64,000 nucleotides of DNA from Rhodoferax lithotrophicus (GTDB taxonomy: Bacteria; Pseudomonadota; Gammaproteobacteria; Burkholderiales; Burkholderiaceae_C). The position numbers and the translations under genes are program-made. Of this stretch, positions 9,080 through 26,739 are shown piece by piece (positions within the stretch are counted from its first letter, which is position 1; every line of letters begins with the position of its first letter). A model generated the notes under the pieces. The model ran no database searches and had not been told where the DNA came from. It saw only the letters and a program-made list of their open reading frames with translations. The stretch covers positions 1,550,001 to 1,614,000 of the forward strand of contig NZ_AP024238.1 in NCBI RefSeq assembly GCF_019973615.1, read 5' to 3'.

Positions 9080-9877
9080 CTACTTGGGGGACACACTTGA
9101 CAAAAATTTCTGGAACCGGGCCGAGCGCTGGCTGGTGAACAGCTCGTCTGGCGGGCCTTCTTCTTCCACCTTGCCTTGGTGAAAAAACACCACCTTGCTG
9201 GCCACTTCGCGGGCAAAGCCCATTTCATGGGTCACCACCAGCATGGTGCGGCCTTCTTCGGCCAGGGCACGCATCACTTTGAGCACCTCGGTGACTAGTT
9301 CCGGGTCCAGTGCCGAGGTCGGCTCGTCAAACAGCATCACATCGGGCTCCACCGCCAGCGCACGGGCAATGGCCACACGCTGCTGCTGGCCACCCGACAA
9401 CTGGTTGGGGTAGTAGTGCTGTTTTTCAGCCAAACCGACCTTTTCCAGGTAGGCAATGGCTTGCAGTTCGGCATCACGCTTGTCGATGCCCATCACCTTG
9501 ACCGGCACAAACATCACGTTTTGCAACACCGTCATGTGTGCCCACAGGTTGAATTGCTGGAACACCATGGCCAGCTGACGGCGGATGCGGATGATTTGCT
9601 CGGGGTCTTCAGGTTTGAGGATGCCGTCCTTGCCCAGGCTCATCTTGATCAGCTCGCCGTTGACAAACACACGCCCGGCGTTGGGTGTTTCCAGCAAATT
9701 GATGCAGCGTAGAAAGGTGCTTTTTCCGGAGCCGCTGCTGCCCAGAATGGCGATCACGTCATGGTTTTTGGCCGTCAGACTGATGCCTTTGAGCACCTCG
9801 GTTTGCCCAAAGGACTTGTGCAGGTCTTCAACGACCAGCACCTCTTTGGCATGGCGGCGGGGTTCGGTACTACTCAC
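9080..9877 (-). CDS. Amino-acid ABC transporter ATP-binding protein (HisP/GlnQ-like)
   Basis: 265 residues. Walker A is GSSGSGKST, the Q-loop lies in [14 protein letters not shown], the signature is [15 protein letters not shown], Walker B is [14 protein letters not shown] and the switch His lies in [13 protein letters not shown]. The inserted stretch [18 protein letters not shown] is typical of the HisP/AotP subgroup. First gene of the operon running to mmuM, and divergent from an Lrp/AsnC gene that is its likely regulator. Confidence 0.95.
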
Positions 9878-14204: not shown

Positions 14205-14287
14205 ATTGGGTTTTTCCGGCAGGGTGAATCAGCAAATAAACAGGTTATTGCGTTCATCCTGCTGGGGGCCTTGTGTCTTGATTTTTA

Positions 14288-14350
14288 TATGATATTTTAA
14301 CCTCTAGAGCTTATTCTGTATGCGTAAGCAGCTGCGTTAAATGTAGCGAT
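14288..14350. repeat. ~60-bp repeat, copy R2
   Basis: TTTTAACCTCTAGAGCTTAT is followed by TCTGTATGCGTAAGCAGCTG and TAAATGTAGC. Same order of blocks as the other copies. It lies directly left of a GNAT-gene remnant, as in copies R3 and R4. The gap 14205-14475 holds only this repeat and that remnant. Confidence 0.8.
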
Positions 14351-14369
14351 AGACGTGATTTTGGGGCGG

Positions 14370-14460
14370 ACTTTCAAGAGGGAGTATGTGATGCATTGGT
14401 GATGTGCCTGGATTCAACTGCATCATCAAATGGCTCTAAATCGAATGGCACGAAGCTGTG
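14370..14460 (-). pseudogene. Remnant of a GNAT acetyltransferase C-terminus
   Basis: Minus-strand reading gives HSFVPFDLEPFDDAVESRHI before the frame drifts and stops. The intact GNAT gene at 20823-21353 has HGFMPFGLEPFAVAVDSGYV at its C-terminus. At nucleotide level, blocks such as CTTTCAAGAGG, CTGGATTCAAC and AATGGCACGAAGC also align in order. Only the last ~30 codons survive; the rest is replaced by the DUF2971 gene. A second remnant lies at 19616-19716. Confidence 0.7.
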
Positions 14461-14475
14461 ATGTTGACTGAGAGG

Positions 14476-15444
14476 TTAAGCAGCGTCATCGGAACCAGCT
14501 TCAGCTTCATTGAAGCCATTACATATTTCTTCTCCAGACTGCGCGGTTTTCGGCATGTACATGGAGAGTTCGGCTTGGTCAACCTCAGATCGTCGAAGGG
14601 CGAACCGATCGCGTTCTACTTTCATCTGAAAGTAGCGCATCGCGGCATCACGGCCAGCGAGTGCTTTGACTACCGTGTGCACCACCGATTCAGGACACCG
14701 CAGACCGAATGTGATCTCCTTGAGCAGTAGGGTTGAGTCTTGATTACCTTGCACTCCCAACAGACGGTACTCCCTCTCATATTTCCAGCCACTTGCTTTC
14801 CGAAGAAGGACATCACGATCAAGTTCCTTCTTCGCGTTTTGATCGTCATGTACCAGTGCGCGAATCAGAACCGACGTGCGTACTGATCGGCTGCCTCCAT
14901 AGACGACGGCGTGCATTTCTGGCTTAGGTTGTCGAATGAGGCCATATCCGATGCATAGACCGCGATGCTGATCACCGTAATGGCTCCAAAGTAAAGGACT
15001 TGCGTAGGTAGTAGAGAAGCAGCAAACCCCTCTTTCGTAGTGCCGATGGAGTTCGCTTTCGATCTGTGTGGTGAGAAGATATCTTTCTGCTTCCGCTTCG
15101 GACACGGTGTACTCGGGGTCTGTGGCGTTGTATGCGATGGTCTCTAGCTCTTTTCTCGCTTCCAATATCGCTCTCTTCTCTGCGTGCGCTGTGGCACCCT
15201 CACCCTTGACTCTAGCTTGCCTAAGAGACGCGAGTACTTCAGACTTTACTCGCCTTCTCACAAGAATAGATAGCAAATTCCGGAGTTCTTCAAGCGGTGA
15301 GTCGCAGTCCAGCGTTGGACTGCAGTCGAGCGGGTCATTGAATGTTCCGGGATTCGCGAAGTACAAATGGTCACGGCAAAGAGAGTCAATGGTGGTTGTG
15401 CTGAATCCACGATATTTGTAGAAGGTAGCTCGCTTACGTGTCAT
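14476..15444 (-). CDS. DUF2971-family protein, probable integron cassette gene
   Basis: 322 residues. The N-terminus TFYKYRGFSTTTIDSLCRDH with LYFANPGTFNDPLDC and the later CCFSTTYASPLLWSHYGDQH are hallmarks of DUF2971, a family of unknown function common on mobile DNA and in defence neighbourhoods. The gene begins 22 bp after a GTTAGTC core site (15466-15472). Its TAA stop lies within GCTTAAC (14475-14481), an RYYYAAC match like an attC R'' box. GC content is lower than in the neighbouring housekeeping genes. Cassette status is inferred; the right half of its attC is not clear. Confidence 0.8.
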   Translation of the reverse strand: MTRKRATFYKYRGFSTTTIDSLCRDHLYFANPGTFNDPLDCSPTLDCDSPLEELRNLLSILVRRRVKSEVLASLRQARVKGEGATAHAEKRAILEARKELETIAYNATDPEYTVSEAEAERYLLTTQIESELHRHYERGVCCFSTTYASPLLWSHYGDQHRGLCIGYGLIRQPKPEMHAVVYGGSRSVRTSVLIRALVHDDQNAKKELDRDVLLRKASGWKYEREYRLLGVQGNQDSTLLLKEITFGLRCPESVVHTVVKALAGRDAAMRYFQMKVERDRFALRRSEVDQAELSMYMPKTAQSGEEICNGFNEAEAGSDDAA

Positions 15445-15467
15445 AGTGTGTGTGGAAATTGCACTGA

Positions 15468-15617
15468 CTAACGAAATTCACATCGGAATGTGCTGCCAAT
15501 GAATGTGATCTTCCCCGCATTCAAACAGCCCTTGCCGCTTGCTGCCATTGCATAGTCTGCTACCATAAAAATAGCATCAATCCCAACGGTTTCTGAAAAT
15601 AGACTAGAAGACTTCAT
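15468..15617 (-). CDS. Micro-ORF A (49 aa), one of three related copies
   Basis: From the ATG at 15617 the product contains SETVGIDAIFMVADYAMA and ends TFRCEFR. It is related to the two other micro-ORFs at 20530-20679 and 24590-24751, which share the FSETAGF.AIFIAADYA and STLRCKSR patterns. The TAG stop is created by the first bases of the following cassette (CG|TTAG). There is no clear ribosome-binding site. It may be a real small protein or a by-product of the repeated element. Confidence 0.35.
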   Translation of the reverse strand: MKSSSLFSETVGIDAIFMVADYAMAASGKGCLNAGKITFIGSTFRCEFR

Positions 15618-15640
15618 GGGCTGACTGTGCTTTCGGCTCT
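15472..15640 (-). repeat. Element A: ~170-bp repeat ending at an integron-type crossover site
   Basis: Homologous to element B (from 20534) and element C (from 24606), including ATTTTCAGAAAC, GCTATTTTTAT and GCAGCACATTCCGATGTGAA. On the minus strand, similarity between copies stops at the G of G|TTAG, the position at which integron cassettes are joined. It lies between the response-regulator gene and the DUF2971 cassette. Confidence 0.65.
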
Positions 15641-15663
15641 GACTGGGTTGAGTTTCGCCGCAG

Positions 15664-16218
15664 CTACTCCGGTGTGCTTTTCGGCGGGACTTCAACTGCG
15701 GACTCTGCGGGCATCTCCGCCGGTGGTTCAGTCGCCACTTCAGGGGCGGTCGGTGTCACCTGGTCTGGGGCGGCCTGCGCCGCGGCCGCAGGTTTTGGAG
15801 CTTCGCGCTGTTCAAGTTGGGTGCGCAGTCGGCTTTCCAGAATCACGCTGTGGCAGGCTTTCTCTATCACCGCCACCAGCCGTTGCTGTTGAAACGGTTT
15901 GAGTACGTAGCCCTTGGCTCCGGCTTTCAAGGACTCCAGCACCATTTTTTCCTGCCCGTGGGAGGTCACCATGATGATGTTGGCATCCGGGAATTCGCGT
16001 TTGATGGCACGTGTGGCTGCAATGCCATCCATCTCCGGCATGGTGATGTCCATAGTGACCAGATCGGGCTTGTACTCGCGGTAGGCGGCGATGGCTTTTA
16101 AGCCGTTGTCAACCGTCTTCACCACCCGGTAACCCAGCAGCTCCATCATCATGACCAGTTTTTGGCTGATGATGGGCGAGTCGTCAACCACCAGGACTCT
16201 GAGCGCGGTGATTTCCAT
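15664..16218 (-). CDS. CheY-like response regulator with Pro/Ala-rich tail
   Basis: The ATG at 16218 is preceded by AAGGTGA; about 184 residues. Residues 1-120 are a receiver (LRVLVVDDSPIISQKLVMMM, phospho-Asp in DLVTMDITMPEMDG, Lys in GYVLKPF). The tail is an Ala/Pro/Glu-rich low-complexity stretch with no output domain, so it probably acts through protein contacts as CheY does. It starts 5 bp after the CheA/CheX-like kinase stop, so the two form one operon and likely a cognate pair. Confidence 0.93.
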   Translation of the reverse strand: MEITALRVLVVDDSPIISQKLVMMMELLGYRVVKTVDNGLKAIAAYREYKPDLVTMDITMPEMDGIAATRAIKREFPDANIIMVTSHGQEKMVLESLKAGAKGYVLKPFQQQRLVAVIEKACHSVILESRLRTQLEQREAPKPAAAAQAAPDQVTPTAPEVATEPPAEMPAESAVEVPPKSTPE

Positions 16219-16223
16219 CGGGT

Positions 16224-19200
16224 TCACCTTGGGGCCACCAGACTGATGCTCAAACGCCCGCACTGGGATACGAGGTGATGGGTGTCCAGCACGGTGTGGC
16301 CGGGGGCTGGAAAGGTGGCAGTGGGGTCAAGAATGAGCGGTGGTGTCATGGTGATTCCCTGGTGGTCTAGATGCGCCATGTCGATCGTACAGTGTCCGAG
16401 GATGGTGTTGACCAATTCTCCGATGGCGGCTTCGCGGTGCAGGGTCAATTCTTCCACAGGATGGGAAAAACCTTCGGTCATCCAGACATGCACGGCGTTG
16501 ACCAGGCTGTTTTCAAAGCTGAAGATGGCCTGGCGCTGGATCTGGCCCCCAAAACCGATCATAACGCTCACATCCAGCAGGTGGGGTGCGGCGACAGCGC
16601 TGTCGGCAAGGGGTACGTCTGCCAAGGGGATGCCGTGTTCGTTGCTGAAATAGTCACGTGTTTTTGTCACCATGGATTGCATGATCAGCGTGGCAGGGCT
16701 GGGCGTTTGGGGATCGAACGGCCTGGCCTCTGAGGCTGCGCCAGGCCAGGGCAGGGTGAAGAGAAATTCGGTGCCCTTGCCCGCCAGCGTTTTGACGGCC
16801 AGCGTGCCGCCCAGCTTTTGGGTTTCGCACCACATTGCGGCCAGTCCGACACCGCGTCCGGCATGCTCGGTCACCGTGGTGCTGCTGCTGATGTGATCCC
16901 GGAAAATCAATTTGGCGATGTCGTCGTCTGACACCTGTTGCACGGCCTCTGCGGTGTAAAGTCCGGCGGCCACCGCGCGTTGGCGAATGGCCTCCAGATC
17001 AATGCCGGCACCGTCGTCAGAGATGGACAGATGCAGGCTGTTGAGGCTCTGGCTGATGCGGCACATGATCTGCCCGGGCTCATTTTTGCCCTCTGACCAG
17101 CGTTCCTCTGGAGTGCCCAGCCCATGGGTGACGGCGTTGCGAAACACATGGCCCAGCACTTGTAAAAAAGCCTGATAGGGCTGCGGGTCGATCCAGATGT
17201 TGTCACCACCTTCGACCTTGAGCGGGGCCACTTCTTTGCCCAGGCGCGTGGCGAGCTGTTTCACCAGGCGGTCAAAGCCACTCAGCAGCTCTTTCAGGGA
17301 CAGCTTGCGCAGGTGCAGCAGCGCGTTGAGCAGCGTGTGCATGTCGGCGCGGCTGGCATCGATGCTTTCACCAGCAAGCAGGTGTGCAGCCATGGCTTCG
17401 AGCTGCTGCGCCTGATGGTCGGTCAGCTGGATGCTTTTGCGGTGCGCCAGAAATTCCTGGCCCAGTGCGTCGCGCAAGATCGCCAGGTCTTGTTCAAACG
17501 GGGTCTTCAAGTCATGCAAAGAAACCGCTTCAGCCAGTTGCTGGGGCAACAGCGCATCACCTTGTGCCAGCAGAGCCGACAAGCGGGTCTCAAGGTCATG
17601 CAAGGCCGTGGGCGTGTGGATAAAACCAAACTGGTTGAGCAAGCCCTTGCAAGTGTGAATGTCGCGGTAAAGGTTGTTGGCCTTGGTTTGCGGATCAAGC
17701 GTGGTCTGGAGCAAGAGCGGCAACCGGTGGTTGACAAATTCACCCCAGGCATCCAGCGCATCAAAGAAACTGCGGCTGTCAGACACCACCGAGACGATGA
17801 AGGCCTGGCGGCTGCGTTCGCTTTGCAGCATGGTTTGCAGCCGCTGCTCTTCGGTGATGTCGGTCAGCACCACCATGGTTTTTCCGTTGCCCAGCAGTTT
17901 GTAGTCGGCTTTGAGCAAGCGGTCGCCACGCGCCAGTTCGCTGGGCAGCAGGCTCAGCATGCTCTCGCGCACCACCGGCTCTGGCTCGGCCAGCGCGGCG
18001 GCGATCACCTCGCCAAAGAGTTCGGCTTGCGCGCTGTCCTGACCCACCAGCACCTGAGCCGCGTTGCGTCCCGCTGGTGAGCAGCCCAGCATGCTGTCAC
18101 AGGCACGGCTGGTCTCCAGGTCAATCACCAGGTCTGCGCCGAATGACAGAAACCCTTGCCCCGAGTGGTTGAGCAAATCACTCACCCGTTGTTGCCCCTG
18201 CAAGGCGGCTTGTTCCGACTGCTTGAGCTGCGCCTGGGTGGACTCGATCACCTGAAGGGCAGACTCTTTGGCCGCCAGCAGTTCCTTGAGGCTTTCCACC
18301 TGGGACTGGATCAGCGAGAGTAATTTGTTGAAGTTGGCGGCAACCAGGCTCAGCTCATCGTGGCCGCCTATGTCAATGCGCGTGGCCCAGCTGGACGACC
18401 CGTCCAGCACCTCCAGTTGCCTGGCGAACCGACGCAGGCGGCGCACCAGCATGAAATTCAGCGTCAGGCCCAGCAAGGTGGTCATGAGCAAAGCCGTCCA
18501 CAGCAACTGCTGGCGAACCTGCTGAAACAACTGCACACCCTGGCGGTGCACGGTGCGTGGCATGTCCAGAGAAATGAGCCCAAGCTCGCCCTGCAAGATG
18601 TCTCGCACCGGGTAGAAGATGTTGACCACCTCGTCATCCAGCGAGGTCCAGAATTCACCGCTGCCAATCGTCCCCGGCTTCAGAATGTTGCGCCATGGGG
18701 TCAACCCTGTGGGCAGGCCCGCTTGCGCCTTCAGGTCAAACGACAGCTTGGTCTGCTCGCGCAGTTTCTGGATGCGCGTCGCATCCAGCAAACGCCCCAG
18801 CAGCACCGTGCCCACCACATCGTTGAGTGCATCGGTATGGACAATGCCCGCCCAGCAGATTTGCATCAGGCCCGCATCGGTCTTGATCAGGCCGCATTGC
18901 GCCAGTTGGGTGTTGGTTTTGATGTGCTGGAAATAGGCACTGTTTTGCGGGGTAAAGATGTTCAGCGTGGCATCCTCGATCTGGATCGCGCTGTAGGTCA
19001 GCAAACGGCCATCTTTGCTAAAAACAGCGCTGAAGGCAATGTCTGCCGGGGCCAGACTCTCTGTGCCAATGTTGTCCTTGGCCCAACGTGCATCGGGCTT
19101 GAGGGCATAGCGGTACATGTCGTTCCAGACCGCCCAGTCCTTGGTCACATTCTTCAAGCTGGTGGCACTGGCCTCAAAGCTCTGCTCCACCCGGCCCATG

Positions 19201-19334
19201 TTGTCTGCAATGTCATCGCGTTCAATGGCTTCATAACTCTTGCTCATGCTTTGCTGCAGCAAGAACAGGCTCACCCCCGCCATCGCGCCAAAACACAGCA
19301 CAAATGCCAGAAGAACCTTGAGACGTATGCCCAT
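16224..19334 (-). CDS. Large sensor kinase: CHASE4-HAMP, Hpt, CheA-like ATPase, CheX-like C-terminus
   Basis: The ATG at 19334 follows GGAGG; about 1036 residues. Order: membrane helix (LLAFVLCFGAMAGVSLFLL), periplasmic CHASE4-type domain (KDWAVWNDMYRYALKPD), second helix near residue 290, HAMP and a coiled coil. A PAS-like segment comes next, then an Hpt-like helix with HTCKGLL, and a CheA-type ATPase (HVFRNAVTHGLGTPEERW, then ISDDGAGI). The last ~150 residues look like CheX (IGELVNTILGHCT, an ExxN-type motif), a family of CheY-P phosphatases. A kinase joined to a phosphatase-like module for its own CheY partner is unusual. Domain boundaries are estimates. Confidence 0.88.
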   Translation of the reverse strand: MGIRLKVLLAFVLCFGAMAGVSLFLLQQSMSKSYEAIERDDIADNMGRVEQSFEASATSLKNVTKDWAVWNDMYRYALKPDARWAKDNIGTESLAPADIAFSAVFSKDGRLLTYSAIQIEDATLNIFTPQNSAYFQHIKTNTQLAQCGLIKTDAGLMQICWAGIVHTDALNDVVGTVLLGRLLDATRIQKLREQTKLSFDLKAQAGLPTGLTPWRNILKPGTIGSGEFWTSLDDEVVNIFYPVRDILQGELGLISLDMPRTVHRQGVQLFQQVRQQLLWTALLMTTLLGLTLNFMLVRRLRRFARQLEVLDGSSSWATRIDIGGHDELSLVAANFNKLLSLIQSQVESLKELLAAKESALQVIESTQAQLKQSEQAALQGQQRVSDLLNHSGQGFLSFGADLVIDLETSRACDSMLGCSPAGRNAAQVLVGQDSAQAELFGEVIAAALAEPEPVVRESMLSLLPSELARGDRLLKADYKLLGNGKTMVVLTDITEEQRLQTMLQSERSRQAFIVSVVSDSRSFFDALDAWGEFVNHRLPLLLQTTLDPQTKANNLYRDIHTCKGLLNQFGFIHTPTALHDLETRLSALLAQGDALLPQQLAEAVSLHDLKTPFEQDLAILRDALGQEFLAHRKSIQLTDHQAQQLEAMAAHLLAGESIDASRADMHTLLNALLHLRKLSLKELLSGFDRLVKQLATRLGKEVAPLKVEGGDNIWIDPQPYQAFLQVLGHVFRNAVTHGLGTPEERWSEGKNEPGQIMCRISQSLNSLHLSISDDGAGIDLEAIRQRAVAAGLYTAEAVQQVSDDDIAKLIFRDHISSSTTVTEHAGRGVGLAAMWCETQKLGGTLAVKTLAGKGTEFLFTLPWPGAASEARPFDPQTPSPATLIMQSMVTKTRDYFSNEHGIPLADVPLADSAVAAPHLLDVSVMIGFGGQIQRQAIFSFENSLVNAVHVWMTEGFSHPVEELTLHREAAIGELVNTILGHCTIDMAHLDHQGITMTPPLILDPTATFPAPGHTVLDTHHLVSQCGRLSISLVAPR

Positions 19335-19548
19335 ATGCAACCTCCATCCATTGTTGGCCCGATGCGGCAGCCTGTTGAAGGGGACAACAGCCACTGCATG
19401 CCTCCCAGCGCGGATTTGAATCCTCGCGCGGCTGGCTCAGAATAGCATGCGGGATGGTGCATCGCGTTGAGCGGGCTGGGTCAGCGGGGCGGTTCTGCAA
19501 TCAAGCAGGCTTTGGCACTCGTTCTGATGGGGGGCTTTGCGCTTTGGT

Positions 19549-19615
19549 TTTTATAGGTCATTTTGGCCTATGGCGCTTATTCTGTTTGCGCAAGTAGCTA
19601 CTTTAAATGTAGCTT
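19549..19615. repeat. ~60-bp repeat, copy R3
   Basis: TTTTTATAGGTCATTTTGGC, CTATGGCGCTTATTCTGTTT and GCGCAAGTAGCTAC with a TTTAAATGTAG tail. It is immediately left of a GNAT remnant, as with R2 and R4. It occupies part of the 448-bp gap between the sensor-kinase start (19334) and the end of the secreted-protein gene at 19783, which otherwise holds the remnant and an attC-like site. Confidence 0.85.
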
Positions 19616-19716
19616 TTGAGGTGTCATTCTGATCGATTTTCAGGTGAACACCACACGGGCGATTTGGCGATATACCTGGAGTCAATTGCTCAATTGCTAC
19701 CGTGAATGGCTCGAAC
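19616..19716 (-). pseudogene. Second GNAT C-terminal remnant, abutting an attC crossover
   Basis: On the minus strand, TTCGAGCCATTCACGGTAGC parallels the intact GNAT gene's TTTGGAGCCTTTTGCGGTAG. It translates as FEPFTVAIEQLT against LEPFAVAVDSGY. Further blocks (CCAGGTATAT, GGTGTTCACC) also align. The homology starts right at the G|TT of the attC-like site, so a cassette appears to have been joined onto a GTT inside a GNAT gene, or recombined there, removing its 5' part. Confidence 0.65.
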
Positions 19717-19779
19717 GTCTGAATTTACCGGCGCTGCGCGTCTTTCTCGCGCAGCGTACTGTGGAATGATGGGTTAGCC
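19708..19779 (-). other. attC-like recombination site 3 (end of the secreted-protein cassette)
   Basis: Minus strand: R'' TTGGGCTAAC follows the gene's TAA stop, then an imperfect hairpin with CGCTGCGCG and CGCGCAGCG arms, then AAATTCAGACGTTCGAGCC as the R' side. R'' is the exact 10-nt reverse complement of the sequence that opens the same cassette (GTTAGCCCAA at 20525-20534). That is the rule for integron cassettes, in which R' of the circular form is split by integration. Confidence 0.75.
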
Positions 19780-19782
19780 CAA

Positions 19783-20520
19783 TTATCTCTTCCACGCCCA
19801 CCCTCCGACATTGGGCCAAGCCTTTCTTGTCTCGATGCTGCACAACTTGGATTTTTCAAATGCAGCCTTAGAAATTCTCATGCGACCGTAGGCGTCACCT
19901 GTTATCGCAACCAAGTAAAAACCGTAGCCTTTGCGGACGGTGGTTGCATTAGTGCCTTTTGGGCTTACTACCAGTGCTTTGTTTTCGAGGGAGTTGATGT
20001 ACGCGGAAAAGCAATGCTCGGACCTGAATACGCTGCCCTTCTCAGCCCCTTTCCATTCAACCGAAAAATCGTTGGCCACTTCGTAGTTGGGTCGGCCGTA
20101 TTGAACTGTCCCTACGATTCCTTGTTCTGGATTATCTGGCGGGGTAAATGGGCAACCACTGTCACCCGGACAATCAGTGTCGCTCCGCGAAAATTGTGCA
20201 TTACCGTCGACGCTTACCATTACTATTTCTTCGGGCATCCGAACCTGGTACCGCGTTAACCCGAACAATTTTTCAAGAAAATCATTCTCCACCTGAATTG
20301 ACCAGCTACCCCAATACCGAATTGCTGGTTTGAACTTGGAATAGTCGGCCTGTAATTCTTGGAGGTTGGAGTAAATATCCGGGTAGCTGAATCGAACTGC
20401 CGCATCAATGATTTCTCGCTCTCCCACGTATTCCAATCTCTTCCATGAAAACCCTGTGAAGTTGCCAGCTTCATAGAGTGAAAAAGGCAAGAGCAACATT
20501 ATGAAGATCAGACGACGCAT
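19783..20520 (-). CDS. Secreted hypothetical protein, integron cassette gene
   Basis: 245 residues starting MRRLIFIMLLLPFSLYEAG, a likely Sec signal peptide. The mature part has no domain I recognise. It has four cysteines in two pairs (DTDCPGDSGCPF and distant single cysteines near residues 165 and 225) and many aromatic residues, compatible with an extracytoplasmic, disulfide-bonded protein. The start lies 5 bp after a GTTAGCC core site and the end is followed directly by a matching R'' box. GC content is lower than that of flanking genes. No function is proposed. Confidence 0.75.
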   Translation of the reverse strand: MRRLIFIMLLLPFSLYEAGNFTGFSWKRLEYVGEREIIDAAVRFSYPDIYSNLQELQADYSKFKPAIRYWGSWSIQVENDFLEKLFGLTRYQVRMPEEIVMVSVDGNAQFSRSDTDCPGDSGCPFTPPDNPEQGIVGTVQYGRPNYEVANDFSVEWKGAEKGSVFRSEHCFSAYINSLENKALVVSPKGTNATTVRKGYGFYLVAITGDAYGRMRISKAAFEKSKLCSIETRKAWPNVGGWAWKR

Positions 20521-20529
20521 AGCATTGGG

Positions 20530-20679
20530 CTAACGTGATTTACAACGCAGGGTGCTCCAAATGAATGTGAACTTCTCTGCATCAAAAAAGGCCTCGAAGT
20601 TTTCTGTGATTGCATAGTCAGCTGCAATAAAAATAGCAAAAAACCCGGCAGTTTCTGAAAATGGACAGGAAGCATTCAT
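20530..20679 (-). CDS. Micro-ORF B (49 aa), second related copy
   Basis: From the ATG at 20679 the product begins MNASCPFSETAGFFAIFIAA and ends STLRCKSR. It is the best preserved of the three copies. The last codon and the TAG stop (CG|TTAG) straddle the crossover point, so termination depends on which cassette follows. Expression is unproven; there is no obvious Shine-Dalgarno sequence. Confidence 0.4.
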   Translation of the reverse strand: MNASCPFSETAGFFAIFIAADYAITENFEAFFDAEKFTFIWSTLRCKSR

Positions 20680-20768
20680 GGCCTGATTGTGCCCTCGGCG
20701 CAATGCATTGGGTTTCTCCCAAACCTGGGATTTGATGACATCTGTTGTTTGTTCAATGGCATCTCAAA
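20534..20768 (-). repeat. Element B: repeat ending at integron-type crossover
   Basis: Homologous to element C over its full length, including the micro-ORF, the GTTTCTCCCAAACCTGGGA region and the approach to the ~60-bp repeat, and to element A over the micro-ORF part. Similarity with A and C stops at the G of CACG|TTAGCCC. It occupies the 302-bp space between the GNAT gene and the secreted-protein cassette. Confidence 0.7.
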
Positions 20769-20832
20769 TGTTCTATGTGTTTTAGGCCTCTAGCGCTTAT
20801 CCAGTAAGCGCAAGCAGCTACGTTAAAAGGAG
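20769..20832. repeat. ~60-bp repeat, copy R4, overlapping the GNAT stop codon
   Basis: GTGTTTTAGGCCTCTAGCGC, TTATCCAGTAAGCGCAAGCA and GCTACGTTAAAAGGAGTATT. A near-consensus copy. The right tail encodes the last residues (KYSF) and the stop of the GNAT gene on the minus strand. Confidence 0.9.
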
Positions 20833-21353
20833 TATTTCGGCAAGCTTTCAAGAGGACACCACAGGTGCAACTTGGACACATACCCGGAGTCAACGGCTAC
20901 CGCAAAAGGCTCCAAACCAAACGGCATGAATCCGTGCCGCTCATAAAGTGACTGAGCAGCCGTATTGCCCTCGGTGACCGTGAGTTGAACCAGCAACACG
21001 CCGGGCCTTGTCTTGGCGTAGGCCAGTGTCGTGGCGAGCAACGTTGAGCCGAGACCCCGATGACGTTGCTGGGTTGGCACATACATGCCGAAGAGCGTGG
21101 CCTTGTGTTTGGCTTTTTCGCGCTTCTCGAATGCCAAGCCTGCCACGCCAGAAAGCACACCGTTGGTGAAGCAGCCAAAGACGATCTCTTTGGGCATCTC
21201 GCCCGTGGCGAGGCGATCCTCCCACCAGGCGACGGGCAATTGGGCGCGTTCAGCAGCGCTGGATGTGAAAGCGTCTGGATGCCGGGCATAGGCTTCAAGC
21301 ATGAGTGCCCGGTATTCAGCGGCGTGCTGAGGGGTAAGGCGGGTGGGGGGCAT
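20823..21353 (-). CDS. GNAT-family N-acetyltransferase, cassette gene
   Basis: 176 residues. The acetyl-CoA binding signature is seen in MYVPTQQRHRGLGSTLLATT (Q-x-x-x-G-x-G/A type) and the late NTAAQSLYERHGF helix-turn. The start lies 3 nt after GTTAACCCA, the R' end of an attC-like site, as in integron cassettes. The 3' end runs into the ~60-bp repeat, which supplies the final residues. Two decayed relatives of its 3' end lie at 14370-14460 and 19616-19716. The acetylated substrate is unknown. Confidence 0.9.
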   Translation of the reverse strand: MPPTRLTPQHAAEYRALMLEAYARHPDAFTSSAAERAQLPVAWWEDRLATGEMPKEIVFGCFTNGVLSGVAGLAFEKREKAKHKATLFGMYVPTQQRHRGLGSTLLATTLAYAKTRPGVLLVQLTVTEGNTAAQSLYERHGFMPFGLEPFAVAVDSGYVSKLHLWCPLESLPKYSF

Positions 21354-21356
21354 GTT

Positions 21357-21447
21357 GGGTTAACGTCGGCGCTGCCCGGCGCGCAACCAGTGCCGCGCAG
21401 CGGCAGCCTTCGGTTGCGTGTCCGCGCCGAGCAAATTGTTAAATGGC
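21357..21447 (-). other. attC-like site 1
   Basis: The clearest attC here. Minus strand: R'' GCCATTTAAC overlaps the TAA stop of the upstream cassette gene. Then comes TTGCTCGGCGCGG, a GC-rich middle with CTGCCGCTGCGCGGCA, then GCGCCGAC and R' GTTAACCC. R'' is the exact complement of the start of its own cassette (GTTAAATGGC, 21848-21857), and the GCTCGGCGC and GCGCCGA arms pair. The length is normal for attC. Confidence 0.85.
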
Positions 21448-21852
21448 GTTGTTCGCATTTACTAAACCCTTCGCTTCGATTGCCAATCTTTCGAGTTCAC
21501 CGAGTCCCGTCTCGATACCAACTTGAACGCTCCACTCCTCGGGCGCACCAGGAAGGCCTCGGAGCTTCACCTGAAAAGTAACTGAACCCAAGGCCGTGCA
21601 GGTGACGGACAAACCTAAATCGCCTTCCAAAGAAGCCCAAGTTATTGCTCCCTTCCAGGGCGCTCGATGCTCGCCAAGGTTGGCGAAAAAGAAAGCGAGA
21701 TCGGGTGCATCCATTTCCGACCATAGCTGTGTATTGGCCGTTATCGAATACCCAGTGAGTTCGACAGGAAAGAAGCTGCCGTTTGGTTCGCCAATTTGGA
21801 GCACACGGTTTGAGGCGGTGGAGCGAATTGTGATCAAGGGTTCCATAGCCAT
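21439..21852 (-). CDS. Small cassette protein, DUF6228-like / immunity-like
   Basis: 137 residues from 21852, or 135 from a second ATG at 21846; the first ATG lies inside the R' box, so the second may be the gene's own start. The product has a beta-rich pattern: an N-terminal strand region, FFANLGEHRAPWKGAITWAS, then GSVTFQVKLRGLPGAPEEWS and GLGELERLA. The layout resembles the DUF6228 family and small immunity proteins; I am not certain of the family. It is bounded on both sides by attC-like sites, and its stop codon is inside the R'' box. Confidence 0.75.
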   Translation of the reverse strand: MAMEPLITIRSTASNRVLQIGEPNGSFFPVELTGYSITANTQLWSEMDAPDLAFFFANLGEHRAPWKGAITWASLEGDLGLSVTCTALGSVTFQVKLRGLPGAPEEWSVQVGIETGLGELERLAIEAKGLVNANNAI

Positions 21853-21912
21853 TTAACGTTTGAATTCAGTGGACCAGCCAGCGCAGCTGGCGCAGGTCCG
21901 CTGCAATGAATG
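21848..21912 (-). other. attC-like site 2, left part, interrupted by a group II intron
   Basis: R' GTTAAAT (21851-21857), L' TGAATTCAAACG, and hairpin arms GGACC/GGTCC and CCAGC/GCTGG around GCGCAGC. The distal arm ATTCATTGCAGC ends at the intron's 5' junction. The remaining R'' half (TGACGCAC, 23945-23952) lies beyond the intron. TGACGCAC is complementary to the GTGCGTCA that opens the same cassette (24327-24340), which confirms that the two parts belong together. Confidence 0.75.
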
Positions 21913-22573
21913 GTGTGCGCCCAGCATGGGCGCGAACTTATGGGGTGAAAGTCCCCTGTGGGAGAACCGAATTGGACTCATAGAGAGCAATCTTAACCAC
22001 TAGCCGACGGCGTGTCCGTAATCGTCTATCAACGATTACGGAGGGGCTGACCCGCGAGGGGTAGTCTGGAGGAAGCCCGAGTGCAAATGTGCGAGACGAC
22101 GAACAGAAACCGCATAGAAGGCCCAGAGCGCCGAGGCAAGCTGGCACATGACAGCAAAGCCCAACGGTTCGATGCCTACGGTAAATGCGGCGTTTGTGCA
22201 CAGAAAGTTTGCGACCCTTACCTGGGGAGATCTGCACCGCGTGCGGTGCAAATGGATGACGGCATGACCCGGATCGGTTCCACCGGGAAACCAAGACTCA
22301 AGTGCCGTGGCGAGCTGCCCGCCACGTGTCGAAGAAACTGGCAGCAACGTCATTCATGAACACAGCGCGACTTGCAGCAATGTGAGCCGTGACGATGCAG
22401 AAGTCAGCAGCGGCCGTAGTAGGTGTTCAGGAGTCGGGATACCGAAGGGCCAAACAATGAGACACAAGGAGCAGACGTGAAAGCCTTGACCAAATCGACC
22501 AAGCCCGAACGGGTGAGATGCGGGCGGCGGCCAACACGCACCGAGCCTTGACACAAGACGAAGTGAAAGCAAA

Positions 22574-23875
22574 GTGACAACTGAACTGCTTGAAGCCGTA
22601 CTGACCAGCGACAACCTGACGCAGGCATGGAAACGAGTGAAGGCCAACAAAGGCGCGCCGGGCATTGACGGCATGACCATTGACGACTTCCCTGACCATG
22701 CACGCGCACACTGGCCAGCCGTGCGACAGCAGATCAGAGAAGGGCGATACCAGCCGCAGCCAGTGCGCAGGGTGGAAATACCCAAGCCCGGCGGCGGCAA
22801 ACGCCTGCTGGGTATCCCCACCGTCATGGACCGGGTCATCCAGCAGGCTATCGCCCAAGTGCTCACGCCGATATTCGATCCGAGCTTCTCGGATTCGAGC
22901 TTCGGTTTCCGACCTGGCCGCAATGCACACCAGGCGATCAGGCAGGTGCAAGCGACTGTGAAGGACGGCAAAAGCATCGCAGTGGACATCGACCTGGCCA
23001 AGTTCTTCGACACCGTCAACCATGACGTGCTGATGAACTTGCTGGGTCGAACCATTGCCGACAAGCGACTGCTGCGCCTGATCGGGCGCTACCTGCGCGC
23101 CGGAGTGCTGGTCGGTGAGCATGTGGAGCCGAGCGAAGTGGGCACCCCACAAGGTGGGCCACTCTCGCCACTGCTGGCAAACATCCTGCTGCACCAGCTT
23201 GACATTGAGCTGGAGAAGCGGGGACACCGCTTTGCACGTTACGCCGATGACATGGTGATTCTTGTCAAAAGCGAACGCGCGGCACAGCGGGTGATGGACT
23301 CCATCACGCGTTATCTGGAAACCACCCTCAAACTCAAAGTCAACTTGGCCAAAAGCAAAGTGGCACCGATGAGCGAATGCGCCTTTCTGGGCTTCACGAT
23401 CAAGGGCAAGAAAATACGCTGGACTGACAAGGTCTTGGCAAACTTCAAGCACCGGATCAAAGAGCTGACCGGGCGAAGCTGGGGCGTTTCCATGGAATAC
23501 CGGCTGCGAAAACTGGGGCAATATCTTCGGGGCTGGACGGCGTACTTTGGCATCAGCCAGTACTACCGACCGGTTCCTGAACTGGACGAGTGGATCAGGC
23601 GGCGCATCCGCATGTGCTACTGGAAACAGTGGCGCTGGGCGCGAACCAAGATCAAGAATCTGCTGGCTTTGGGGGTTGACCTGAAGTCAGCGATTCAGCA
23701 CGGTGTCAGCAGCAACAGCTACTGGCAGATGTCCAGAACACCAGTGATCAAGCAAGCGATATCCAACGCGTGGCTAAAGGAGCAAGGTTTGCTCAGTGTG
23801 AAGGACCTGTGGTGCAACGCACAGGGCTATACGGGAAAGAGGAGGAAAACTTCGTCGAGCGTGCCAACTTGTTGA
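22574..23875 (+). CDS. ltrA: Group II intron reverse transcriptase/maturase (class C)
   Basis: 433 residues from a GTG start. RT landmarks: WKRVKANKGAPGIDGMTIDD, RRVEIPKPGGGKRLLGIPTV, SFGFRPGRNAHQAI, FFDTVNHDVLM, GTPQGGPLSPLLANILL and the catalytic YADDMVIL. The maturase X domain (RLRKLGQYLRGWTAYFGISQ) and a basic C-terminus follow. There is no HNH endonuclease, which fits group IIC elements that insert at DNA hairpins such as attC or terminators. The frame is intact, so the intron may be active. Confidence 0.96.
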   Translation: MTTELLEAVLTSDNLTQAWKRVKANKGAPGIDGMTIDDFPDHARAHWPAVRQQIREGRYQPQPVRRVEIPKPGGGKRLLGIPTVMDRVIQQAIAQVLTPIFDPSFSDSSFGFRPGRNAHQAIRQVQATVKDGKSIAVDIDLAKFFDTVNHDVLMNLLGRTIADKRLLRLIGRYLRAGVLVGEHVEPSEVGTPQGGPLSPLLANILLHQLDIELEKRGHRFARYADDMVILVKSERAAQRVMDSITRYLETTLKLKVNLAKSKVAPMSECAFLGFTIKGKKIRWTDKVLANFKHRIKELTGRSWGVSMEYRLRKLGQYLRGWTAYFGISQYYRPVPELDEWIRRRIRMCYWKQWRWARTKIKNLLALGVDLKSAIQHGVSSNSYWQMSRTPVIKQAISNAWLKEQGLLSVKDLWCNAQGYTGKRRKTSSSVPTC

Positions 23876-23944
23876 ACCGCCCACTGCGGACCCGCATGGT
23901 GGGTGGTGTGGGGGCTGGGAGTTAGAGACTCCCGGCTACCCGAT
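23874..23944 (+). ncRNA. Group IIC intron domains V and VI
   Basis: Just after the RT stop: GAACCGCCCACTGCGGACCC with the pairing GGTGGGTGGTGTG, matching the class-C domain V (CGC rather than AGC triad, GCGGACCCGCAT tetraloop region). It is followed by GGGGCTGGGAGTTAGAGACT and CCCGGCTACCC, a domain VI stem with a candidate bulged A. The intron ends GAT at 23944. Confidence 0.85.
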
Positions 23945-23949
23945 GTGCG

Positions 23950-24318
23950 TCATTGCCACTGGCTCAGCTCTTTAAGACTAGCAAAACTTCCATTGAACCG
24001 AGGGAGTTGAGGCACCGCCGCGATATCAGCAACTAGTTCCGAACTTGCTTGCTTCATTGGAGTTGCGCGCAGTTTGTACGGACCACCCGGAAGATCCCAG
24101 TCAAAAACGTACAACCCGACTGCCGCGTAGTCGCTCCACACTTTCTCCGTTCCAGTGTGTGGGCTGGGAATAGCTTCCGTGATTGCCGAGTGCTTCGCGT
24201 GATGGGTTGTCACGGGAGCTGGGAAAAATCCTTCACCGGCTGTCGCAAAGAGCGCGATATTTCCATCGGTGTCCCTGGCAAGCCAGTCAAACTCAATTCC
24301 GTCGAGATCGGGGTGCAT
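23950..24318 (-). CDS. Small cassette protein, immunity-like
   Basis: From the ATG at 24318 (a further in-frame ATG at 24360 would lie before the attC junction) the product is 122 residues. The N-terminus DGIEFDWLARDTDGNIALFA with TAGEGFFP is a pattern I associate with small immunity-like and cassette-encoded proteins. The middle has YVFDWDLPGGPYKLRATP. The start is 15 nt after the GTTGTGC core, and its stop overlaps the residual R'' sequence next to the intron. No enzymatic motif is seen; an immunity role is only a suggestion. Confidence 0.75.
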   Translation of the reverse strand: MHPDLDGIEFDWLARDTDGNIALFATAGEGFFPAPVTTHHAKHSAITEAIPSPHTGTEKVWSDYAAVGLYVFDWDLPGGPYKLRATPMKQASSELVADIAAVPQLPRFNGSFASLKELSQWQ

Positions 24319-24326
24319 AGCTGCCT

Positions 24327-24533
24327 CTATGACGCACAACGTTGGAAATGTGCGGCGCACGCGAAGCGGGTGTCCGTACGATTGAGGCGGTCTGTCGCGG
24401 ATCGCAACACCTCTTGGCGCGTATTCTGTCTATCCACAATCGTCCCCTTTTTGGTCAACAGCCTACGTAGCTGTGTCACTTCGTCCGTGTCAAAAGCTTG
24501 CTTTTGTCCGTGCGCTGTGTCGCAGCTACGCAC
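24327..24533 (-). CDS. Hypothetical small cassette ORF (68 aa, GTG start)
   Basis: Open frame from a GTG at 24533. The product is basic and polar: FDTDEVTQLRRLLTKKGTIV then RQEVLRSATDRLNRTDTRF. It fills the ~270-bp interval between element C and the next cassette and ends across the attC-like junction. No family was recognised and there is no strong ribosome-binding site. It could be a genuine cassette gene or non-coding cassette DNA. Confidence 0.35.
   Translation of the reverse strand: MRSCDTAHGQKQAFDTDEVTQLRRLLTKKGTIVDRQNTRQEVLRSATDRLNRTDTRFACAAHFQRCAS
24334..24395 (-). other. attC-like site 4 (weak)
   Basis: Minus strand: GGACACCCGCTTCGCGTGCG, then CCGCACATTTCCAACG and the core GTTGTGC. 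The right side and crossover core are convincing because the next cassette's R'' (TGACGCAC) matches. The left R'' box is not clear and would lie inside the 68-aa frame. Confidence 0.5.
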
Positions 24534-24589
24534 GCTACCAGAAAATCGTCGCTGTATAAATACCCAGCATATGTGCTAGTGCCACCGTT

Positions 24590-24751
24590 CTATCCGTCGA
24601 TCGACCGTGATTTACACCGCAAGGTGCTGCAAATTAAAGTGACAAGTTCAATCTGAAAATGCGTCTTTCCGCAAACTGCCATTGAAGACTTAGCTGCAAT
24701 AAAAATAGCATCAAACCCGGCAGTTTTTGAAATTTGACTTGAAGCACTCAT
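24590..24751 (-). CDS. Micro-ORF C (53 aa), third related copy
   Basis: From the ATG at 24751: MSASSQISKTAGFDAIFIAA ... LICSTLRCKSR, then four extra residues because this copy is followed by G|GTCGATC instead of G|TTAG. The alignment with copies A and B includes the first ~20 residues and the C-terminal 10. Protein-level conservation exceeds what the central nucleotides suggest, but coding status is unproven. Confidence 0.35.
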   Translation of the reverse strand: MSASSQISKTAGFDAIFIAAKSSMAVCGKTHFQIELVTLICSTLRCKSRSIDG

Positions 24752-24842
24752 GGCTTGATTGTCTTCCAGGCGCAATGCCTTGTGCATCCCCCAAACGGGG
24801 GATCTCAATGCGTCTGTTGATTGCTCAATAGCATCTTAAGTG
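24606..24842 (-). repeat. Element C: repeat ending at crossover position, with GC hairpin
   Basis: Colinear with element B from the ~60-bp repeat down to GTAAATCACG. It includes a perfect hairpin ATCCCCC-aaac-GGGGGAT (24786-24803). B has the weaker TCCCAAACCTGGGA at the same place, and the gap near 26443-26460 has a similar ATCCCC/GGGGAT stem. Homology to B stops at the G of CACG. Confidence 0.65.
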
Positions 24843-24911
24843 CTTTATAAATTTTAGGTTTCTAGCGCTTATTCAGTAAGCGTAAGCAGCTATAAAAAAT
24901 GTAGTATTTTG
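24843..24911. repeat. ~60-bp repeat, copy R5
   Basis: TTTATAAATTTTAGGTTTCT, AGCGCTTATTCAGTAAGCGT and AAGCAGCTATAAAAAATGTA. One of the best-preserved copies. It flanks element C on the right exactly as R4 flanks element B. Confidence 0.9.
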
Positions 24912-24965
24912 AGTCACGCATTACAGACCAAACAGCGCGCTCACTCACCTACACAGCTTGCTGCC

Positions 24966-25136
24966 TCAGCCTGCATCATCCAACGCCTCAAGTGCCGCAG
25001 TGACAACCCGTTGCGCCTCTCCAATCAGTTCAGCAGGGTGGCCTTTGGCGACCAGTTGTTTGGTGTGGTTGGCGGACAGCTTGCTGGCGTTTTGCAGGCA
25101 GGCCCGCACCAGCAGCACCAGGTCGTTGTTGTTCAT
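24966..25136 (-). CDS. Small hypothetical protein (56 aa)
   Basis: The ATG at 25136 is 5 nt after AGGGG. The product starts MNNNDLVLLVRACLQNASKL and ends EAQRVVTAALEALDDAG. It is predicted helical, with no recognised family. It begins 22 bp after the stop of the secreted-protein gene, suggesting a two-gene operon. The frame is open upstream to 25334, but that part overlaps the other gene in a different frame. Confidence 0.5.
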   Translation of the reverse strand: MNNNDLVLLVRACLQNASKLSANHTKQLVAKGHPAELIGEAQRVVTAALEALDDAG

Positions 25137-25158
25137 TGCCCCTGGCAACGCATTGAAT

Positions 25159-25560
25159 TCACTTTGCAGTGTCCACGTGTAGCGCAAGAAGCCTGCAGTC
25201 TGACTCTGGAGCGCTGGCGATATGAAATTGCAACGGGCCGATGGACTCCGAGTGCGCATTGATCCAGTAACCCTGGTAGGTGTAGGAGTCTGGTAAATCC
25301 TTTGCTTGAATGGAAATTCTTGTGTGCTGCGCAAAGCGTGCAGTCGTCGCTTCTTGGATACCTGTCACTTTGCCGAGGCTTTCGGCCATACGCTGCAAGG
25401 GCCCCAAAACCTCAGACGGGTTGGCGAACAAGGTCGCCAATTCTTTTGTCTTGCTGCTAGCCAGAAGACCCGCTGCGTGGATTCCACACGACTCTTTGGC
25501 TATTGCGTTTGACAAGGTGGCCAAGAGAAAAATGGGTAAAAGTGTGTATCGAATGTGCAT
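25159..25560 (-). CDS. Secreted hypothetical protein
   Basis: The ATG at 25560 gives 133 residues with a Sec signal peptide (RYTLLPIFLLATLSNAIA-KE). The mature part contains LATLFANPSEVLGPLQRMAE and YTYQGYWINAHSESIGPLQF. There are two cysteines (near residues 25 and 124) that could pair. Family not recognised. It is followed at 22 bp by a 56-aa gene with a good ribosome-binding site. Confidence 0.65.
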   Translation of the reverse strand: MHIRYTLLPIFLLATLSNAIAKESCGIHAAGLLASSKTKELATLFANPSEVLGPLQRMAESLGKVTGIQEATTARFAQHTRISIQAKDLPDSYTYQGYWINAHSESIGPLQFHIASAPESDCRLLALHVDTAK

Positions 25561-26332: not shown

Positions 26333-26739
26333 CACAAGATTTCTTCCTGCGCTGCGATAAGTCCAGCAACAGTTGCGGTGGTTGGGGGAGTGGCTAAGTA
26401 GGCGCTATGTGCTGATTCTCACGTCGGCACCATTTTCTGAATATCCCCCAAACAGGGGATTTGGTGGTGTAAATGACTAGTGCGTCGTGGGATTCATTTC
26501 ATATGCCATTTAAGCCTATAACGCTTATAAAGTAATCGTCAATAGCTATTGAAGATGTAGCAACTTTGTTAAACAAAGATGAGTTGCTTTCGTGCGCATT
26601 GATCTTGAGCGCATCATGATAAGTATCGGATATTGATACCTTGCATCTCTATTCATCAGACTTCACATGAAAAAAGAGACTATTTGGCCTGACGCAGCCC
26701 ACACTTGCGCCCATGTTCAACAACTCTTCAAGGAAACGT
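26333..26739. other. Intergenic stretch with hairpin and ~60-bp repeat copy R6
   Basis: About 400 bp with no gene that I can support. It contains a stem ATCCCC/GGGGAT (26443-26460) like the one in element C. It also has a diverged repeat copy (26500-26564: AAGCCTATAACGCTTATAAA then GTCAATAGCTATTGAAGATG). Towards the right end it holds the upstream region of the YiaA/B-type gene. Confidence 0.6.

What the first reader, a model, noticed from the sequence alone, without database searches (positions are those of the whole stretch)
14466..24606. Integrase-less integron cassette array (CALIN-like) on the minus strand
Successive minus-strand genes start within a few bases of GTTRRRY-like cores and stop within or just before RYYYAAC-like boxes. 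In three cases the R'' after a gene is the exact complement of the bases that open the same cassette: GTTAAATGGC with GCCATTTAAC (gene 21439-21852), GTTAGCCCAA with TTGGGCTAAC (gene 19783-20520), and GTGCGTCA with TGACGCAC (gene 23950-24318). This cassette-specific pairing is what integron integration produces and is hard to get by chance. No tyrosine recombinase gene is in the window. That cassettes are attC-bounded is established knowledge; assignment here is from sequence.
Basis: partly seen in the sequence, partly recalled or inferred. Interest (0 to 1): 0.85.

Follow-up and report, generated by a model that had tools for sequence, protein, structure and literature searches.

The report
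Dispersed docking sites for integron cassettes
This stretch of a bacterial chromosome holds mobile gene cassettes sitting behind copies of a repeated element that ends like an integron's attachment site but has no integrase gene beside it; because related bacteria carry quite different genes behind the same element, it likely works as a landing site that an integrase made elsewhere would use.

Summary
But it is not one headless CALIN. Three copies of a repeated ~200-nt element head the runs, at 24.6, 20.5 and 15.5 kb. Each ends in an attI-like core: a matrix from attIs beside integrase genes ranks these cores 4, 1 and 2 of 127,942 window positions. The element recurs elsewhere in this genome, in other genera of the family and on a conjugative plasmid. 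In 60 further loci, 53 of 53 attC hits (E<=0.01) lie on its strand and downstream, with no complete intI found there. In eight orthologous pairs the flank is 84-90% identical up to within 10 nt of the core, with nothing shared beyond. Best reading: orphan attI-like docking sites, likely served by an integron integrase acting in trans. Recombination at them is untested and the integrase unidentified.

The parts
24598..24815 (-). docking element, copy U1 (attI-like core at about 24601, here CACGGTC instead of CACGTTR)
   Evidence: repeat family, models R2 and R3, attI matrix rank 4 of 127,942
24334..24388 (-). weak attC candidate of a decayed first cassette behind U1
   Evidence: attC model R1, E 0.13; fold not better than shuffles
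23950..24318 (-). cassette A gene; no Pfam or NCBIfam family for the ORF 23950-24360
   Evidence: opener/closer pairing 9 of 10 with the intron left out
21915..23944 (+). group II intron, 2030 nt, in the attC of cassette A, against the direction of the cassettes
   Evidence: Rfam RF02001 and RF01998; ends GTGCG..AT
22574..23875 (+). intron reverse transcriptase/maturase
   Evidence: TIGR04416 422 bits; PF00078, PF08388
21851..21918 (-). attC of cassette A, split by the intron
   Evidence: attC model R1, E 2.4e-4
21439..21852 (-). cassette B gene, DUF6228
   Evidence: PF19739 59.6 bits; pairing 10 of 10
21357..21447 (-). attC of cassette B
   Evidence: attC model R1, E 1.2e-6; fold z -2.05
20823..21353 (-). 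GNAT acetyltransferase gene on the far side of the first run (88% identical protein at the same place in G018)
   Evidence: PF00583; L054
20526..20745 (-). docking element, copy U2 (core CACGTTAGCC)
   Evidence: attI matrix rank 1 of 127,942
19783..20520 (-). cassette C gene, 245 aa, no Pfam or NCBIfam family
   Evidence: pairing 10 of 10
19709..19782 (-). attC of cassette C
   Evidence: attC model R1, E 8.4e-5; fold z -3.23
15464..15618 (-). docking element, copy U3 (core TTCGTTAGTC), 5' part missing
   Evidence: attI matrix rank 2 of 127,942
14476..15444 (-). gene behind U3, DUF2971, candidate defence protein; no attC recognised after it
   Evidence: PF11185; PADLOC PDC-S31 1.3e-39; no R1 hit
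26338..26456 (-). partial docking element (model positions 2-121, no core) upstream of gene 26335-25793; also before the same gene in G018
   Evidence: model R2; E 0.0075 in the genome search

Best explanation
The cassette runs of the window begin at three copies of a repeated ~200-base element that ends in an attI-like core and has no integrase gene beside it, and this element likely serves as an orphan docking site at which an integron integrase encoded elsewhere would insert cassettes. Shown: the copies; their attI-like 3' ends; attC sites downstream on the same strand (behind two of the three window copies and in many other loci); and different cassettes at the same docking sites in related species, with the sequence break at the core. 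Inferred: that the break was made by an integron integrase recombining attC with the core; that the enzyme acted in trans (from another locus, a plasmid, or a gene since lost); and that the element spread as a unit by plasmids and by recombination. In this genome only remnants of intI were found, so the sites are probably silent unless an integrase enters the cell. The role of the conserved body upstream of the core is not known; an accessory binding region is a guess.
For: attC sites by an independent model. Repeat family: four copies of 192-309 nt in this genome, a fifth at 1,464,973. attI matrix from 12 distinct sequences beside integrase genes: window cores rank 1, 2, 4 of 127,942; rank 1 in 6 of 7 other loci, not in the top three in L059; rank 1 within the locus in 29 of 35 higher-scoring docks, 26 of 35 without the GTTA columns. 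First round: of 12 examined R2 hits that reach the core, 8 have attC downstream on the same strand; of 30 that stop short, none. Second round: 60 loci, 53 attC hits at E<=0.01, all on the element's strand and downstream; at least one in 31 of 53 core-reaching and 1 of 7 partial loci. No complete intI in those 60 loci, pieces in 4. Orthologous sites: his locus in four species of the genus (six pairs, 1.57-1.70 kb aligned, 88-90%, ending 0-10 nt from the core), G000 U1/G018 C280 (84%, to -5), G217/G307 (90%, to -4); no downstream hit in any. Cassette proteins there do not match each other, while the far-side CSD/DUF1294 gene is 80-86% identical in three species. A dock heads a cassette on conjugative plasmid NC_007949.1. 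G303, one contig, has one full-length intI and at least five docks, 0.17-2.3 Mb from it along the contig.
Against: No recombination was tested. G000 has only intI remnants and G018 no hit at 1e-30, so no integrase now present can be named. In G303 the attI beside its own intI does not resemble its docks. Three R3 hits do lie beside integrase genes and were not among the 60 fetched: G001:C10:86367 and G056:C82:116108, matching only the last ~50 model positions, and G123:C35:94606-94763, matching 84-211 at 22 bits; so the profile also picks up ordinary attI. 22 of 53 core-reaching loci have no attC hit in the fetched flank, some with little flank, most unexplained. Without the GTTA columns the window cores rank 8 (U1), 43 (U2) and 387 (U3), and the plasmid core ranks 17 with and 161 without them. 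No attC was recognised behind U3, and the U1 core is mutated. Some docks keep pieces of intI or, by eye, of its promoter region, as expected if intI was lost in place. The element's small ORF shows no clear coding selection and no promoter was found above chance.
Confidence: 0.7

Rival explanations
1. Loss in place: each dock is simply the attI of a once complete integron whose intI has been deleted, and the cassettes are leftovers.
For: Some docks keep what looks by eye like the intI promoter region (four in G303, one each in G337 and G024 C8) or pieces of intI (4 of 60 loci; L172). Three R3 hits lie beside integrase genes. Loss of intI is one of three routes to CALINs listed in PMC8618304 (passage).
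Against: Model R2, of the window's type of dock, has no hit up to E 5 in 29 sources, most of them holding intact or decayed intI-attI regions or their arrays. At the his locus no intI piece was found in five species of two genera, yet the cassettes differ in every one, so they changed without a local intI unless it was lost several times. In this genome G1076 and U1 share 362 nt at 73%, more than the element itself, which points to copying of the dock.
Confidence: 0.3
2. Homologous recombination: whole arrays are swapped between docks and genomes by ordinary recombination through the shared element and flanks; no integrase acts at the core.
For: Docks and the short dispersed repeats beside them offer homology; U2 lies in what looks by eye like a duplication with the GNAT gene and the short repeat; G002 and G034 share a dock with the same two cassettes at different loci.
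Against: It gives no reason for the break to fall at the core in each of eight orthologous pairs, nor for the cassette-specific opener/closer pairing.
Confidence: 0.2
3. Off-target insertion: the cores are attG-type secondary sites that an integrase happened to pick.
For: attG sites are described as sites that are neither attI nor attC and take cassettes into genomes (PMC12901181 and PMC12444791, passages).
Against: The sites share a conserved body (16 copies of one genus; other genera), recur at the same loci in several species, and match attI; PMC12444791 describes attG insertion as broadly distributed over loci.
Confidence: 0.06
4. The element is a conserved promoter, terminator or small gene of its own, and cassettes next to it are incidental.
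For: It holds a small ORF without stops in all seven copies examined, and its middle block TGCCGGGTTTG..CTATTTTT looks by eye like half a terminator.
Against: pN/pS 0.88 and hardly any third-position excess; loci that match only part of the profile have attC in 0 of 30 and 1 of 7 cases; attC orientation is 53 of 53.
Confidence: 0.05

Closest known systems
CALIN (cluster of attC sites lacking an integron integrase)
   Same: clustered attC-bounded cassettes, no intI nearby
   Different: each run is headed by a member of a dispersed attI-like family; IntegronFinder 2.0's authors write that attI sites outside class 1 are poorly described and not detected (PMC9024848, passage)
attI site of chromosomal integrons
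   Same: 3' end like TTGCGGnnTACATTACGTTR; cassettes start at the GTT core; array on one side only
   Different: no intI beside it; several copies per genome; for the window's type a distinct conserved upstream body
attG sites (Loot et al. 2024, known here only from citing papers)
   Same: take cassettes away from the integron platform
   Different: described as divergent sites spread over many loci; these are copies of one element with an attI-like end
Delta-attI gene cassettes of mobile integrons (PMC12901181, abstract and passages)
   Same: attI pieces away from intI that IntI1 still recombines
   Different: there the attI piece belongs to resistance cassettes of mobile integrons; here it heads chromosomal arrays
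group IIC-attC introns
   Same: group II intron in an attC, opposite to the cassettes, ends GTGCG..AT
   Different: the junction reads TGGT/G, not the published consensus TTGT/T (PMC7923331, passage)

Membership tests
CALIN | at least two attC sites close together | tested here: met
   three R1 hits at E<=2.4e-4 between 21918 and 19711
CALIN | no integron integrase gene nearby | tested here: met
   none found in the window
attI | attI-like sequence with a G/TTRRRY-type core at the head of the array | tested here: met
   ranks 1, 2, 4 in the window and rank 1 in 29 of 35 other loci; U1 core mutated; weaker without the GTTA columns
attI | adjacent to intI | tested here: not met
   no complete intI in 60 loci nor in 16 earlier loci and the window, apart from a truncated one in L172; three profile hits beside integrase genes were not fetched
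attI | recombines with attC through IntI | not testable with these tools
   needs a recombination assay; different cassettes at orthologous sites are indirect support
attG | divergent sites without a conserved element | tested here: not met
   conserved body in 16 aligned copies
group IIC-attC intron | group II ribozyme and reverse transcriptase | tested here: met
   RF02001 122 bits, RF01998 54 bits; TIGR04416
group IIC-attC intron | class C lineage | not tested
   no phylogeny or class-specific model was run; judged from position and ends only
group IIC-attC intron | inserted in attC, opposite to the cassettes | tested here: met
   intron on +, cassettes on -, inside the attC of cassette A
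group IIC-attC intron | insertion consensus TTGT/T | tested here: not met
   exon bases AATGGT before and GTGCG after the intron

The most novel reading that the evidence does not exclude
A distributed integron: in this bacterial family the attachment site has become free of its integrase and multiplied into many landing pads around the chromosome and on plasmids, each holding its own cassettes, all served by one integron integrase in trans, resident or passing through.
Probability: 0.42. Interest if true: 0.85.

Novelty: new variant of a known kind. Interest (0 to 1): 0.75.

Why it matters
One survey counted 2,961 CALIN beside 2,760 complete integrons and recalls the proposal that CALINs are degraded integrons (PMC9024848, passages). 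A dispersed family of docking sites would give part of them a cause and a place. It would mean that one genome can hold several independently changing cassette ports, and that cassettes, candidate phage-defence genes among them, can land at predictable places without a local integrase. It is directly testable with standard integron assays, and the sites can be found with a simple profile.

Tried and rejected
Small ORF of the element as a gene: not supported (pN/pS 0.88). Promoter in the docks: none above chance in 14200-25200. Palindrome scan of the window: 0 matches, but the spacer I asked for does not fit the U1 palindrome, so this says nothing. Docks as attC sites: model R1 gives no hit at them, and two dock ends folded do not beat shuffles. 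Empty docks: the C49 locus of G018 has no counterpart in G000 beyond the nitroreductase gene, and the kinase relatives of G075 and G080 (63-64% identical) are preceded by another gene; no clean empty site was found. Plasmid search with the window's own copy: no match; with three other copies the same one plasmid each time. Order-wide search: 1 of 399 genomes, the window's own, at E<=1e-6; filters were strict and few genomes of the family were drawn, so this only suggests that the family of sites is confined to this bacterial family. First attC model: RNAalifold gave only 6 pairs; a second alignment was not used. Pfam scan with a wrong coordinate failed and was repeated without that protein.

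In print: ten searches of an open-access library listed no title or abstract start that describes a dispersed orphan attI family; I read only listings and passages, and Loot et al. 2024 was not available.
Full report
What was claimed and what is there. The window is G000:C1:1550001-1614000 of a 4.94-Mb single-contig genome; a relative found by its GNAT gene is a Comamonadaceae MAG (L054), which is contig C280 of G018 in the same genus. On the minus strand genes 21852-21439 and 20520-19783 open with a GTT core whose next bases are the complement of the sequence after the stop, 10 of 10 bases; the other 146 of 148 ORFs of at least 100 aa score at most 7. The gene 24318-23950 scores 9 if the intron is left out and the start set at 24318, and 5 as a mechanical ORF. 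I took 16 attC sites from cassette arrays in other genomes of the genus (picked from an own scan for paired R boxes and foldback, so the choice was mine), built a covariance model from them alone, and searched the window on both strands. The gene behind 15.5 kb (DUF2971) and the GNAT gene do not exceed background in the pairing and have no attC hit after them. A histidine kinase and a response regulator lie at 19394-15664; the kinase has an 87% identical counterpart in G018 behind dock C184. These look like ordinary chromosomal genes.

The intron. 21915-23944 on the plus strand is a 2030-nt group II intron (RF02001, RF01998; TIGR04416) with ends GTGCG..AT. It lies in the attC of cassette A, against the cassettes, as described for group IIC-attC introns (PMC7923331, passages). 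Its insertion point TGGT/G differs from the published TTGT/T, and its class was not tested.

The element at the head. Each run starts right after a repeat whose window copies are 66-77% identical, with a further copy at 1,076,214 and a fifth, more distant one at 1,464,973. The similarity ends at the GTT core. A short ORF in it ends at the core in several copies, but pN/pS is 0.88 and third positions are hardly more variable, so I do not claim a gene. In G018 one copy (C280) sits at the place of U1 with another cassette and the same GNAT gene beyond it; one (C184) precedes two other cassettes and the kinase; one (C49) is at another locus.

The 3' end is attI-like. 16 of 89 genomes of the genus have an integrase match over the TIGR02249 cut-off; G000 and G018 are not among them. 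From loci with such integrases (one of them with stop codons) I collected 14 attI ends, 12 distinct, by the strings ACATTACGTTA or TTACGTTA and made a 30-base matrix. Over 127,942 positions of the window it puts the three cores at ranks 1 (20531-20560), 2 (15469-15498) and 4 (24603-24632); in seven other loci the core is rank 1 in six and not in the top three in L059. With the last four columns (GTTA) left out the window ranks are 43, 387 and 8, in the same order, so for U2 and U3 much of the weight comes from the core itself. Among 35 docks (10 of the first round, the 24 second-round loci of at least 35 bits, and the plasmid) the core is rank 1 in its locus in 29, and in 26 without those columns. 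The 29 lower-scoring core-reaching loci were not scanned. Model R2, of the window's type of dock, has no hit in 29 sources that mostly hold intact or decayed intI-attI regions or their arrays.

How far it reaches. R2, a profile of seven copies of G000 and G018, matched 29 of 89 genus genomes at E<=0.05, many only with the middle block. I fetched 40 flanks and searched them with the attC model: all 13 hits (E<=1) were on the element's strand and 12 of them downstream; the thirteenth belongs to an upstream cassette in L172, where the element sits inside an array behind a truncated intI. With L061 and L060, 8 of 12 loci reaching model position 192 or beyond had attC downstream; of the 30 fetched loci that stop short none had. 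L062, also a short one, has only weak hits (E 0.13 and 0.19). R3, a profile of 16 copies, matched 60 of 89 genus genomes at E<=0.01 (list cut) and 59 of 299 family genomes at E<=0.001. Counting only matches of at least 35 bits that reach the core, I read from those tables 12 of 89 and 13 of 299 genomes (own genome in both, training copies included). Over the order it was 1 of 399 genomes, the window's own, at E<=1e-6.

Test on new loci. I fetched 60 more loci (53 core-reaching, 7 partial). Left out were hits already held, one at a contig end, and hits beside known integrase genes (G001:C10, G056:C82); the weak G123:C35:94606 hit, also beside intI, and other weak hits were not fetched. The attC model gave 59 hits up to E=1, 53 of them at E<=0.01. 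All 53 lie on the element's strand and downstream; none upstream, none on the other strand. 31 of 53 core-reaching loci and 1 of 7 partial ones have at least one; of the 24 core-reaching loci with at least 35 bits, 16. tblastn with 12 IntI queries found no complete intI in the 60 loci; four hold pieces of it. By eye there are two kinds of dock: those with the window's body, and canonical attI ends that keep an intI-promoter-like region without intI (four in G303, one each in G337 and G024 C8).

Same dock, different cassettes. Upstream and downstream sides of 59 docks were compared pairwise. Upstream alignments of at least 350 nt were found for 14 pairs. At the his locus (histidinol dehydrogenase on one side, an aminotransferase on the other) of G002, G034, G025 and G039 six pairs align over 1.57-1.70 kb at 88-90% and stop 0-10 nt before the core; four further pairs join these to G212, of another genus (77-78%, ending about 250 nt before its core). 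G000 U1/G018 C280: 84%, to -5. G217/G307: 90%, to -4. Two pairs join G1076 to U1 and C280 over about 360 nt (73%, 82%). None of the 14 has a downstream hit at 1e-8 within 1.2 kb. Proteins from up to four ORFs behind each of 11 docks show no cross-match, except the CSD/DUF1294 gene at the far side of the his array in three species. This is what exchange of cassettes at the core would leave.

Vehicle and enzyme. A dock follows repB on the 360-kb conjugative plasmid 1 of Polaromonas sp. JS666 (NC_007949.1): R3 105 bits; the gene behind it has, by eye, opener GTTAGGCATC and closer GATGCCTAAC, and an attC follows (E 0.0036). Seven of 17 family genomes tested have an integrase match over the cut-off. 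In single-contig G303 the full-length intI at 3.394 Mb is 0.17-2.3 Mb from five docks, each with an attC downstream. But the attI beside that intI is of another sequence type than the docks, so the enzyme that used them is not identified. In G000 I found only pieces of intI.

Judgement. The array is real and is a CALIN by definition; its new side is the dispersed, integrase-free, attI-like head. Papers: PMC12901181 outline with abstract, and passages; PMC12444791, PMC11023631, PMC7923331, PMC9024848 and PMC8618304 passages only; all others search listings.

Noticed in passing
G000:C1 near 3480.1k (L039 6150-6170), 1736.3k (L041), 142.3k (L043): Three copies of an insertion element with a tyrosine-recombinase gene start at the same bases GTTGAACTAAACCGC; two sit exactly at the core of attI sites beside intI pieces, as if the element landed at attI.
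   Followed up: partly
window 14264-14376, 19530-19642, 20777-20837, 24850-24909: A ~35-nt repeat beside the docks (TAGCTGCTTGCGC..ATAAGCGCTAGAGGCC) matches at 37 other places among the hits listed for this genome; REP-like.
   Followed up: no
window 14476-15444; L186 2625-3470; L057 2572-3747: Genes behind docks resemble candidate or known phage-defence proteins: DUF2971 (PDC-S31), a TIR-Mrr protein and a SIR2-like protein.
   Followed up: partly
window about 19700-19640 and 14435-14376; L059 about 9197-9260; L057 2430-2520: C-terminal scraps of the GNAT gene follow the cassettes at several docks (by eye; one search aligns two of them), so in this lineage dock and GNAT tail seem to have been copied together.
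   Followed up: partly
L172 2500-3870: In G034 a dock with two cassettes lies inside the array of a truncated integron, between two copies of the same GTTACAGCGC.. sequence, like a duplication; G002 has the same dock and cassettes at another locus.
   Followed up: partly
L170 3973-5250: In G024 the dock lies next to a phage-type integrase gene (PF00589 with arm domain), which suggests travel on a genomic island.
   Followed up: partly
cassettes at L010, L054, L057, L059, window 20520: First genes behind several docks of G000 and G018 start with a signal-peptide-like stretch; the two at L010 and one at L063 9023-9568 look like one protein family (by eye only).
   Followed up: no
window 12952-13073: Rfam match Bcj11 (Burkholderia RNA 11), 83 bits, inside a long open reading frame.
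   Followed up: no
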